NCBI GenBank assembly: GCA_021200215.1 | Contig: JAJQGV010000140.1 | Span: 1-37,321, forward strand | DNA length: 37,321 bases | Direction: 5' to 3' | DNA from: Ruminococcus sp. | GTDB taxonomy: Bacteria > Bacillota > Clostridia > Oscillospirales > Ruminococcaceae | Shown here: positions 31,739-37,321 of the stretch, piece by piece | Layout of the letters: each line of letters starts with the position of its first letter | Position numbering within the stretch: position 1 is the stretch's first letter | The notes under the pieces: model-generated | Databases searched by the model: none | The model's input: only the letters and a program-made list of their open reading frames with translations | Told to the model about the DNA's origin: nothing | Position numbers and translations under genes: made by a program

Positions 31739-33253
31739 CTATCCGTTGTCTACAGCTAGTAAGATTTCAGTTGATACTATCTTAATGCTACAGAATATCT
31801 CTTTTAAGAAATCTCTTTTTACTCTAATGGGTAAGAGCTTAAACTCCTCTAAGAGAAAGTTATGTATGTTAAACTCGTGGGATTTTAAACTTAGATTGTA
31901 TTCTATAGTGTTTAAAGTCGTTAAATCCTTTTCATACTCCTTAGAAATCTCCTTAAAAGCTAGAGAGTCCTCATCTAAGTGTAGAAGAAGTTTTCTATCC
32001 TTAGATAGCTTTTTAGATATAATATCTCGTTGGATATCTGTAGTACCGTTGCGGATATCCTTTTTTAGATTTTCAAGTTGTGGAACTACATCACTATTAG
32101 GGTGAACTAAAGTAAATATCTTTTTTAAGATAGCGTCATCTAATGAACCATCTACGTTACTAGAGTTACATACTTTAGTACCATGACTCAACTTATTACT
32201 ACACGCATATACGAAACCCTTACGTTTGGTACGAGATATCATCTTTGAATTACATAAGGGGCAGTATATACTTCCAGATAGCAGACTATTAGAGTTGTGG
32301 ATACTCTTAGACCTATAGTCTTTTCTATGTAACGATTTCTGAACATCTACCCAATCGATGCCTTGAACTACTCCCAAATGTTCACCAATAGATACTATCC
32401 AACTGCTTGGAACTACTCTCTTTTGTGATTTGCCATCTACTGTAGAAGTTCTACCATAGACTATATATCCGTTAGAGTTACAACCATCTAAGGTACAGAA
32501 CATATTACAACCTATACCCTTTAGATATTCAAATGATGTGCTATCGGATTGGCAATACACAGGATTCTCTAATATGGTCTTAATGCTAGACCTACTATAA
32601 AGATTCCCCTTAGGTGATTCTATTCTACTTTCAAACAGATACCTCTCTACCGCCGATATACTATGACTTTCTAAGTACTTCTTAAACATAAGATGTATAA
32701 TCTGTAGGTCACTATTAGGGGTAAGTTTAAATTTAGTCTTACCATCGACAATGTAAGACGTAGACGTATATCCAGTAGGAGTTATTCCGCCAAGCCATCT
32801 ACCAGATTTAGCAAGAGAATACATATTGTCCTTTACCCTTTCAGATAGTGTTTCTCTTTCTAGTTGAGCAAATACACACGCCATAAATAGCATAGCTCTA
32901 CCACCCGATGTGGAAGTGTCATACCTTTCTGAAGTGGATATAAAACCTATGCCTAAGTTTACCAATTCTTGATACAAGTTAGCAAAGTCGGATACGTTCC
33001 TAGATACTCTATCTAGTCGATACACTACTACGTAATCTATTAAGTTAGCATAGCAATCCTTTAACATACGTTTAAAAGATGGTCTATCTAAATCTTTGCC
33101 AGAGTAACCTTCATCTAAGTAGGTATGAACCTCATGTGGAGAGGTATCCTTAAAGGTTAGGTCTATGTACTGTAAACAATAATCTAGTTGATTCTGCACA
33201 CTTTCGCCCCTACCCGTATACTTAGACTTCCTACAGTATATTGCAAACCTCAA
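31739..33253 (-). CDS. Large serine recombinase (resolvase plus recombinase plus zinc-ribbon domains)
   Basis: 'FAIYCRKSKYTGRGESVQNQLDYC', 'LDEGYSGKDLDRPSFKRML', 'YRLDRVSRNVSDFANLYQEL', 'YCPLCNSKMISRTKRKGFVYACSN'; TTG start at 33253. Confidence 0.9.
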   Translation of the reverse strand: MRFAIYCRKSKYTGRGESVQNQLDYCLQYIDLTFKDTSPHEVHTYLDEGYSGKDLDRPSFKRMLKDCYANLIDYVVVYRLDRVSRNVSDFANLYQELVNLGIGFISTSERYDTSTSGGRAMLFMACVFAQLERETLSERVKDNMYSLAKSGRWLGGITPTGYTSTSYIVDGKTKFKLTPNSDLQIIHLMFKKYLESHSISAVERYLFESRIESPKGNLYSRSSIKTILENPVYCQSDSTSFEYLKGIGCNMFCTLDGCNSNGYIVYGRTSTVDGKSQKRVVPSSWIVSIGEHLGVVQGIDWVDVQKSLHRKDYRSKSIHNSNSLLSGSIYCPLCNSKMISRTKRKGFVYACSNKLSHGTKVCNSSNVDGSLDDAILKKIFTLVHPNSDVVPQLENLKKDIRNGTTDIQRDIISKKLSKDRKLLLHLDEDSLAFKEISKEYEKDLTTLNTIEYNLSLKSHEFNIHNFLLEEFKLLPIRVKRDFLKEIFCSIKIVSTEILLAVDNG

Positions 33254-35189: not shown

Positions 35190-35232
35190 ATCTTAAATTC
35201 ATTTATTACAACGTTTAACTAATTTAAGCAAG

Positions 35233-35490
35233 AATTCTCGCCACTTCAACAGTGTAAGTGGCGAGATGAATTGTTAAAAGGAAACTTAACGGCAGTGGTG
35301 GGGCGGAGAGAAATCGGTATCCCCTACTGACACAAGGCTAATTCATGCGTATCAATGTACGCACGTCGCACTCCGATAATATACCGAGCATGAGTTGAAA
35401 CAAACATACTCTTTGTATTATGTAACTAAATCTATGTGCGAACCATAAGCACACATGAAAATACTGCATCATTCACAGAAGCTTTCTGTG
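35233..35490 (+). ncRNA. Candidate structured, pseudoknotted non-coding RNA (possibly raiA-like; identity unverified)
   Basis: Hairpin AATTCTCGCCACTT/AAGTGGCGAG-atg-AATT; GTTAA/TTAAC; CAGT..GGGG/CCCC..CTG; TGCGTA/TACGCA; AATTCATG/CATGAGTT; crossing helices CGGAG(35304-35308)/CTCCG(35371-35375) and TCGGTAT(35314-35320)/ATACCGA(35381-35387); 3' hairpin CACAGAA-gct-TTCTGTG then TTTAATTTT. Confidence 0.6.
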
Positions 35491-35606: not shown

Positions 35607-37319
35607 GTCGCTCCTCACACGAGGAGCGTGGATTGAAATTTTACAGTGTATCGATGTAAATTTTATTAACTATGGTCGCTCCTCACACGAGGAGCGTGGA
35701 TTGAAATGTAAAATGTTATCATATAACCTAACTTAGTCACAGTCGCTCCTCACACGAGGAGCGTGGATTGAAATATGCCTAGCAAAGCACTTCAACAGCC
35801 TATAGACGTTCTGTCGCTCCTCACACGAGGAGCGTGGATTGAAATATGCTTTTTCTCACTTTCTCCGGCACTTGGGGGGTCGCTCCTCACACGAGGAGCG
35901 TGGATTGAAATTATACTTATTTTGCCCAAATTTACCCGTTACAGGTCGCTCCTCACACGAGGAGCGTGGATTGAAATAATATATTAGCGTTAATATATGA
36001 CATTTGTTGCAATGGTCGCTCCTCACACGAGGAGCGTGGATTGAAATACGATTTGGGGCATAAGTTAATAAAATCGTGCAGGTCGCTCCTCACACGAGGA
36101 GCGTGGATTGAAATTTGATTATAATTATACTCGGTTAAAAATTTTTCCGTCGCTCCTCACACGAGGAGCGTGGATTGAAATCGAGAATACGATTTAAACA
36201 AGAATACTGTTTATGTCGCTCCTCACACGAGGAGCGTGGATTGAAATAGAAACAACAAGAATGAGTGCTATGGAAATGCATGTCGCTCCTCACACGAGGA
36301 GCGTGGATTGAAATGTATCTATGATTATAGGTGCAGTTATGTTCTGCGTCGCTCCTCACACGAGGAGCGTGGATTGAAATATTTGATTGTTTACAGTGCT
36401 TGTTTGTGGTTGCTGTCGCTCCTCACACGAGGAGCGTGGATTGAAATATTTACTTTGTTACAAATTCATTGTTATTTTTTGTCGCTCCTCACACGAGGAG
36501 CGTGGATTGAAATATCAATAAAGTCAGATATATTAATAAAAATAGCGTCGCTCCTCACACGAGGAGCGTGGATTGAAATACCCTCGTTGCCACAATCTTG
36601 CCACATTGCTGCGGTCGCTCCTCACACGAGGAGCGTGGATTGAAATACATAGCCTAAAGTAACTCTGAACGCCATCTCTGGTCGCTCCTCACACGAGGAG
36701 CGTGGATTGAAATCAAGAGGTAGTATTATATACATATTTATGTTGTTGTCGCTCCTCACACGAGGAGCGTGGATTGAAATGTGGGCAATAGTTTTAAAAT
36801 AGTCTTGCGTTAAGTCGCTCCTCACACGAGGAGCGTGGATTGAAATTGTGGGAGCAGGTCGGGAAATATAAAAACTCAACTGTCGCTCCTCACACGAGGA
36901 GCGTGGATTGAAATAAAACGCATGGATTGTAGAAATTGCGGAACTCTCGTCGCTCCTCACACGAGGAGCGTGGATTGAAATACAATAGCCGGTAGGTTGT
37001 CTAAATATATGATGTGTCGCTCCTCACACGAGGAGCGTGGATTGAAATACGAGTCCTAAAATCATACTCCTCGGTTGATAACCAGTCGCTCCTCACACGA
37101 GGAGCGTGGATTGAAATACCATACTGATTACAAAGATTTATATATTCATTGTCGCTCCTCACACGAGGAGCGTGGATTGAAATGAGTTAGTGTGTGTAAC
37201 TTCGTTTTAGTGTTTGCTGTCGCTCCTCACACGAGGAGCGTGGATTGAAATGTTTGCCCCTACCCCACCTAGTGGGGCAGTAGGCTGTCGCTCCTCACAC
37301 GAGGAGCGTGGATTGAAAT
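35607..37319 (+). CRISPR. Type I-C-like CRISPR array, 26 repeats / 25 complete spacers, reaching the window edge
   Basis: Repeat GTCGCTCCTCACACGAGGAGCGTGGATTGAAAT (33 bp), identical in all 26 copies; spacers 33-38 nt; internal palindrome CGCTCCTC-acac-GAGGAGCG. Confidence 0.98.
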
Positions 37320-37321
37320 AA

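What the first reader, a model, noticed from the sequence alone, without database searches (positions are those of the whole stretch)
35233..35490. Pseudoknotted structured RNA candidate between the GGGtGRT gene and the CRISPR leader
Seen: this 250-nt intergenic stretch is less AT-rich than neighbouring spacers and dense in complementary segments. The strongest are the hairpin CTCGCCACTT(35237-35246)/AAGTGGCGAG(35256-35265), and two crossing helices, CGGAG(35304-35308)/CTCCG(35371-35375) and TCGGTAT(35314-35320)/ATACCGA(35381-35387). Those two together would form a pseudoknot enclosing TGCGTA(35346-35351)/TACGCA(35358-35363), with AATTCATG(35340-35347)/CATGAGTT(35389-35396) as a further or alternative helix. 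A CACAGAA/TTCTGTG hairpin with a following T-run could be the 3' end. Inference: a conserved ncRNA. The layout is reminiscent of large Firmicute RNA motifs such as raiA, but I cannot confirm membership. If unmatched, it is a new RNA class, possibly linked to the CRISPR locus only by position.
Basis: partly seen in the sequence, partly recalled or inferred. Interest (0 to 1): 0.75.

Follow-up and report, generated by a model that had tools for sequence, protein, structure and literature searches.

The report
Mobile element carrying a pseudoknotted RNA

Summary
In detail: every helix listed is at the stated coordinates, and homologues support the crossing helices by compensatory changes. The interpretation needs changing. 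The conserved unit is 35219-35403 (185 nt), not 35233-35490; the terminator hairpin is separate. It is not raiA and matches no Rfam family. It is a dispersed repeat: about 53 copies in this 1.9-Mb genome, 9-23 in several Lachnospiraceae and Oscillospiraceae, but present in only 3 of 396 genomes sampled from the order. Its first ~60 nt are homologous to the left end of TTTAA-targeting IS605 transposons. An empty site in a sister species shows exact insertion after TTTAA with no target duplication, the IS200/IS605 signature. Unusually, the 3' two-thirds is not an IS605 right end but a pseudoknotted domain, strongly constrained even in copies that lost the left end. Copies lie sense to the upstream gene (41 of 43), often directly before a ribosome-binding site. 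Best reading: a non-autonomous IS200/IS605-type (PATE-like) element carrying an RNA domain that acts in the host mRNA. A guide-RNA role or a purely ssDNA role is not excluded. The CRISPR link is positional.

The parts
35214..35218 (+). TTTAA, target pentanucleotide 5' of the insertion (host side)
   Evidence: Found 5' of the left end in 40 of 56 scored copies, TTCAA in 5; kept in the empty site of a sister species
35219..35403 (+). The whole element, 185 nt, from the base after TTTAA to GAAACAA
   Evidence: Boundaries from homologues and the exact empty site
35219..35277 (+). Left-end module: linker plus hairpin, homologous to IS605 left ends
   Evidence: 38 nt at 92% to IS605 left ends in L089/L091 (E 2e-9); 42 nt at 86% to L252; 32 nt at 91% to L079; matches found with homologous copies of the element
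35236..35266 (+).
   Evidence: compensatory changes
35293..35298 (+). P3 5' strand CAGTGG, pairs with 35324-35329
   Evidence: 95.5% of cells paired, all 6 pairs with two-sided changes
35324..35329 (+). P3 3' strand CTACTG
35304..35308 (+). Pseudoknot helix 1, 5' strand CGGAG
   Evidence: 96-98% paired, compensatory CG>UA and GC>AU changes
35371..35375 (+). Pseudoknot helix 1, 3' strand CTCCG
35314..35319 (+). Pseudoknot helix 2, 5' strand TCGGTA
   Evidence: 98.2% paired, compensatory GC>AU and UA>CG changes
35382..35387 (+). Pseudoknot helix 2, 3' strand TACCGA
35340..35348 (+). P4 5' strand AATTCATGC
   Evidence: 89.1% paired, 8 of 10 pairs with two-sided changes
35388..35396 (+). P4 3' strand GCATGAGTT
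35346..35363 (+). P5 variable hairpin TGCGTA/TACGCA (shares 3 nt with P4)
   Evidence: differs between subfamilies
35397..35403 (+). Element 3' end GAAACAA; sequence beyond it is unrelated between copies
   Evidence: empty site
35474..35490 (+). Separate intrinsic-terminator-like hairpin, NOT part of the element
   Evidence: not part of the sequence shared with the other copies

Best explanation
35219-35403 is a protein-less mobile element of IS200/IS605 type (PATE-like). Shown: it inserts 3' of TTTAA without target duplication, its left end is homologous to IS605 left ends, it is repeated tens of times per genome, and its 3' domain (P3, P4 and a two-helix pseudoknot) is conserved by compensatory change. 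Inferred: a Y1 transposase (TnpA) acting in trans moved it as single-stranded DNA; once inserted in the sense direction inside a transcription unit it is transcribed with the host mRNA, and the knotted domain acts there in cis, as an intercistronic or 5'-leader element that shields the mRNA or tunes translation of the downstream gene. Confidence: about 0.9 for the mobile-element identity, 0.85 for a real conserved pseudoknot, 0.4 for the cis-mRNA role.
For: Copy numbers: 53 in G000, 23 in G124, 14 in G211, 15 in G212, 9 and 20 in the two Hungatella genomes. Exact empty site: GTGCAGTTCTTTAA|TTTTCATTTTAC in L115 against TTTAA[element]TGTTCATTTTAC in L041; six congeneric genomes lack the copy that lies upstream of lgt. 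Left-end homology. Covariation. RNA-level role in place: in 13 own-genome copies without a recognisable complete left-end hairpin, pseudoknot sites differ from consensus at 4.9% against 25.2% at unpaired sites (Fisher p 4e-16, sites not independent), and pseudoknot pairing is fully intact in 11 of 13. Five of those 13 lie 3-40 nt after a near-perfect sigma-70 promoter against 0 of 32 others. The upstream gene is codirectional in 41 of 43, the downstream gene in 34 of 38; GGAG within 22 nt of the 3' end in 18 of 46. In a Hungatella genome a copy behind a terminator lost its pseudoknot 5' strands by internal deletion.
Against: No transcript data. The flanking genes are ordinary and diverse and no downstream gene family recurs, so a regulatory signal is not apparent. 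A Hungatella subfamily (L232-L238) replaces the pseudoknot with a local hairpin near the same 3' end, so the pseudoknot is not essential to every lineage. Codirectionality is partly expected from the lagging-strand preference of IS200/IS605 plus leading-strand genes, and from TTTAA containing a stop codon. No Y1 transposase was found in G000. The element lacks the IS605 right end. The CM search favours copies with intact cores.
Confidence: 0.55

Rival explanations
1. Guide RNA of a TnpB-like nuclease (omegaRNA): the knotted domain is a natural single-guide scaffold that ends at the transposon end, the flank is the guide and TTTAA the TAM, so that empty alleles are cut and the element is retained.
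For: T-rich 5' target motif, scaffold end equal to element end, pseudoknotted scaffold, sense orientation; the left end and TTTAA target are shared with TnpB transposons. RAGATH-18 is a precedent of a structured RNA motif that proved to be a TnpB guide (PMC11061315).
Against: No copy was found next to a tnpB. TnpB genes are absent from G124 (23 copies) and from the closed H. hathewayi genome (9 copies) by two Pfam models. The right ends and omegaRNAs of the TnpB transposons inspected are unrelated. The pseudoknot does not involve the 3'-terminal nucleotides, as it does in ISDra2 (PMC10097598).
Confidence: 0.2
2. The fold matters only as single-stranded DNA: P3, P4 and the pseudoknot are the right-end structure read by the transposase, and conservation reflects mobility only.
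For: IS200/IS605 transposases read ssDNA hairpins near the ends (established for the family); the Hungatella subfamily has a local right-end hairpin about 13 nt from the same end.
Against: Many G-U pairs are tolerated in the short helices. Pseudoknot sites stay constrained in copies lacking the left end, which should be immobile. Five such copies lie directly after a promoter, four of them also directly before a gene.
Confidence: 0.2
3. crRNA or CRISPR-repeat mimic of the type I-C system of the same locus: the 3' end resembles the repeat's ..GAGCGTGGATTGAAAT.
For: About 16 nt of likeness to the window's repeat; sub-threshold Rfam CRISPR-DR9 match in one homologue, 21.2 bits against a cut-off of 45, E 0.018.
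Against: No Cas5d in G000, G124, G219 and G474, all of which hold copies; the part in question is P4 and changes by compensation to GACTGTGAG in Fusicatenibacter; no match in L028.
Confidence: 0.03
4. Member of a known large RNA motif such as raiA.
Against: No Rfam match in the window element or in 18 homologous loci; multi-copy mobile distribution.
Confidence: 0.01

Closest known systems
PATEs (palindrome-associated transposable elements) of Haloquadratum walsbyi, PMC3119063
   Same: Short, protein-less, no target duplication, short 5' target oligonucleotide, near-terminal palindrome related to IS605 ends, high copy number, repeat-mediated core deletions (seen here in G226)
   Different: Only the left end matches an IS605 end here; the 3' two-thirds is a covarying pseudoknotted domain, not a right-end palindrome (except in the Hungatella subfamily)
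TnpB omegaRNA / reRNA (ISDra2, PMC10097598; RAGATH-18 with IS607 TnpB, PMC11061315)
   Same: Structured, pseudoknotted RNA ending at a transposon end, T-rich motif at the left flank
   Different: No adjacent tnpB, different sequence and pairing, found in hosts without TnpB
IS605 stem loops at the 3' ends of Borrelia lipoprotein genes, PMC2775950
   Same: IS605-derived structure kept at gene ends with G-U pairs that suggest an RNA-level role
   Different: Simple hairpins on plasmids of one genus; no pseudoknot
raiA motif (RF03072; ModT, PMC11706538)
   Same: Pseudoknotted Firmicute RNA of similar size
   Different: No Rfam match; dispersed mobile repeat

Membership tests
IS200/IS605-type non-autonomous element (PATE) | No target-site duplication | tested here: met
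   Exact empty site, L115 against L041; one site only
IS200/IS605-type non-autonomous element (PATE) | Insertion 3' of a short fixed oligonucleotide | tested here: met
   TTTAA in 40 of 56 scored copies, TTCAA in 5; also in the empty site
IS200/IS605-type non-autonomous element (PATE) | Left end related to an IS605 left end, with near-terminal palindrome | tested here: met
   92% over 38 nt, E 2e-9
IS200/IS605-type non-autonomous element (PATE) | Right end related to an IS605 right end, with near-terminal palindrome | tested here: not met
   No similarity to the right ends of the TnpB transposons inspected; near-terminal hairpin only in the Hungatella subfamily. Filed as PATE-like, not as a member of any described PATE family
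IS200/IS605-type non-autonomous element (PATE) | Too short to encode a transposase, no terminal inverted repeats | tested here: met
   185-200 nt; ends CTAATTTAAG and GTTGAAACAA are not inverted repeats
IS200/IS605-type non-autonomous element (PATE) | Mobilised by a Y1 transposase | not testable with these tools
   Y1 genes in F. saccharivorans and Hungatella, fragments in B. schinkii, a degenerate one in G124, none in G000
TnpB omegaRNA | Overlaps or follows tnpB, forming the right end of its transposon | tested here: not met
TnpB omegaRNA | Guides DNA cleavage next to the TAM | not testable with these tools
   Only the T-rich flank is compatible
raiA (RF03072) | Reaches the Rfam gathering score | tested here: not met
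Type I-C CRISPR repeat | Reaches the CRISPR-DR9 cut-off, with Cas5c in the host | tested here: not met
   21.2 of 45 bits; no Cas5d in 4 of 11 element-bearing genomes

The most novel reading that the evidence does not exclude
A transposon-borne riboregulator: an IS605-type left end was joined to a pseudoknotted leader RNA, and transposition has spread that RNA in the sense direction to some fifty sites in the operons of one genome, where it is kept by selection as a dispersed post-transcriptional control element of essential genes.
Probability: 0.25. Interest if true: 0.8.

Novelty: new variant of a known kind. Interest (0 to 1): 0.6.

Why it matters
It adds, where Rfam has nothing, a conserved pseudoknotted RNA of human-gut Lachnospiraceae and relatives that spreads as a small IS200/IS605-type element. 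Insertions into rpoB|rpoC and hisI|hisE and in front of efp, tig, ileS, murA, argH and rplT would make a testable case of transposons rewiring mRNA leaders, or of an orphan guide-RNA system. The cultured hosts (Fusicatenibacter saccharivorans, Blautia schinkii, Hungatella hathewayi) make the test direct.

Tried and rejected
raiA and any Rfam family: no match. Scan of viral contigs with an 18-base core pattern: nine hits, all chance. Plasmid records: none. The six 'phage' records are unannotated human-faecal contigs; four of them (L008, L010, L011, L012) carry the same flanks as F. saccharivorans copies, so they look like bacterial DNA rather than evidence of phages. Partner protein next to the copies: none recurs. 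CRISPR-mimic idea: rejected on host distribution and compensatory change. Own TnpB as the autonomous parent: its ends differ. TnpB transposons in G226 and G474 searched for the GTGGATTGAAAC right end: none. The first MAFFT alignment misaligned P4 of Fusicatenibacter; counts were redone on a model-based alignment, which leans towards P3 and P4 but not towards the pseudoknot, whose pairs were not in the model.

Full report
What is in the sequence. The 268-nt stretch folds better than shuffles (z = -2.7), and the 185-nt unit defined below better still (z = -3.4, 0 of 200 shuffles). No Rfam family reaches its cut-off there.

It is a dispersed repeat. A DNA search found two more copies at about 95% in the same genome and three at 73-78% in a relative. 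Homologues followed in human-faecal contigs and, by a core pattern, in about 45 loci of Fusicatenibacter saccharivorans, Blautia schinkii, Hungatella hathewayi, Eisenbergiella tayi, Clostridium clostridioforme, an Oscillospiraceae MAG and others. A covariance model of the core then counted 53 copies in the window's own 1.89-Mb genome, 23 in G124, 14 in F. saccharivorans, 15 in B. schinkii, and 9 and 20 in two Hungatella genomes. Yet only 3 of 396 genomes sampled from the order have any: patchy and strongly amplified, as mobile elements are.

Boundaries and mobility. Copies share sequence from just after TTTAA to GAAACAA, and nothing beyond. In the window this is 35219-35403, with TTTAA at 35214-35218. 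The terminator-like hairpin at 35474-35490 is outside. The H. hathewayi copy L041 has an exact empty counterpart in a sister species: GTGCAGTTCTTTAA|TTTTCATTTTAC against GTGCAGTTCTTTAA[element]TGTTCATTTTAC, so insertion is 3' of TTTAA and nothing is duplicated (a 1-nt placement ambiguity remains). Six Fusicatenibacter genomes lack the copy that F. saccharivorans carries upstream of lgt. Insertion 3' of a fixed short motif without duplication is the signature of IS200/IS605.

Relation to IS605. The first ~60 nt (linker and P1 hairpin) are homologous to the left ends of IS605 elements that also follow TTTAA: 92% over 38 nt, E = 2e-9, in a Lachnospiraceae genome that also holds copies; likewise in B. 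schinkii (hairpin part) and G474. In F. saccharivorans the transposon left end is of the same kind but follows TTTAT (by inspection). The right ends of those transposons (..GTCAC) and their omegaRNAs are not in the element. It is therefore PATE-like at its left end and unusual at its right.

The RNA domain. On a model-based alignment of 87 distinct sequences, P3, P4 and the two crossing helices are 94% paired (31-38% when slid), 19 of 27 pairs vary on both sides, and no shuffle of 500 matches this. Pseudoknot helix 1 shows CG>UA and GC>AU, helix 2 shows GC>AU and UA>CG, both 96-98% paired; these pairs were not in the model used for alignment. Many of the loci were found by a pattern that fixes the 5' strands, but the own-genome copies found by the model were not. 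The P4 helix changes wholesale between lineages.

Context. In the own genome the upstream gene is codirectional in 41 of 43 copies and the downstream gene in 34 of 38, and a GGAG lies within 22 nt of the 3' end in 18 of 46. Against an assumed 78% background of leading-strand genes 41 of 43 is still high (p = 0.002; the 78% is an assumption), but TTTAA also carries a stop codon and often precedes GGAG, so part of the bias is expected. Sites include hisI|hisE, rpoB|rpoC (L070 of the Oscillospiraceae MAG), and the leaders of efp, tig, ileS, murA, argH and rplT (gene names by reading the proteins).

Constraint without mobility. Thirteen own-genome copies lack a recognisable complete left-end hairpin (judged by eye). 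In them unpaired sites differ from consensus at 25.2%, pseudoknot sites at 4.9%, and pairing is fully intact in 11 of 13. Five lie 3-40 nt after a near-consensus sigma-70 promoter, against none of 32 others; in four of these a gene starts within 20 nt downstream, so promoter, core and gene form a leader. This suggests that the RNA is kept for a role in the mRNA. Limits: the model favours intact cores, copies share ancestry, and there is no transcript evidence. In Hungatella several copies lost the pseudoknot 5' strands by deletion, including one behind a terminator, and one subfamily has a local hairpin instead.

Mechanism. Shown: target, lack of duplication, left-end homology, conserved pseudoknot, sense orientation. 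Inferred: mobilisation by a Y1 transposase in trans, and a cis role in mRNA stability or translation. A guide-RNA role is a main rival; it explains the T-rich target and the RNA ending at the element end, but hosts without any TnpB (H. hathewayi, G124, G214, G215, G216) keep copies.

CRISPR. The array starts at 35607. The element's 3' end resembles the type I-C repeat, with a sub-threshold Rfam match in one homologue, but four of eleven element-bearing genomes, G000 among them, have no Cas5d. The neighbourhood looks accidental.

Literature. PATEs (PMC3119063), IS605 stem loops kept at the RNA level in Borrelia (PMC2775950), and TnpB guide RNAs (PMC10097598, PMC11061315) are the nearest precedents. 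The searches run did not turn up a description of this element; subscription papers and supplements were not searchable.

Noticed in passing
window 35607-37321: CRISPR array with type I-C-like repeats (GTCGCTCCTCACACGAGGAGCGTGGATTGAAAT) running off the contig end; no Cas5d found in the genome assembly, so the cas genes are missing from the assembly or the array is orphan.
   Followed up: partly
window 31739-33253 (-): Large serine recombinase (matches to the CcrB/CcrC families below cut-off), a sign of an integrated element.
   Followed up: no
   Followed up: no
L232-L238 (G226): Second subfamily (~199 nt, L232-L237 91-97% identical, L238 about 76%): same P3 and (in L232-L237) same left end, but a local right-end hairpin CATTCTGAGTT/AACTCAGAATG and GTGGATTGAAATAA instead of the pseudoknot.
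   Followed up: partly
L222 and L236: Sister Hungatella genomes carry insertions of different subfamilies about 20 nt apart in the same leader, upstream of the same coding region.
   Followed up: no
G000 contigs C15, C97, C131, C152 and others: Many copies lie at contig ends, so the element probably breaks the assembly and its true number may exceed 53.
   Followed up: no
window 35299-35303: The window copy has one extra G (GGTGGGGCGG) that the other aligned copies lack, just 5' of the CGGAG strand.
   Followed up: no
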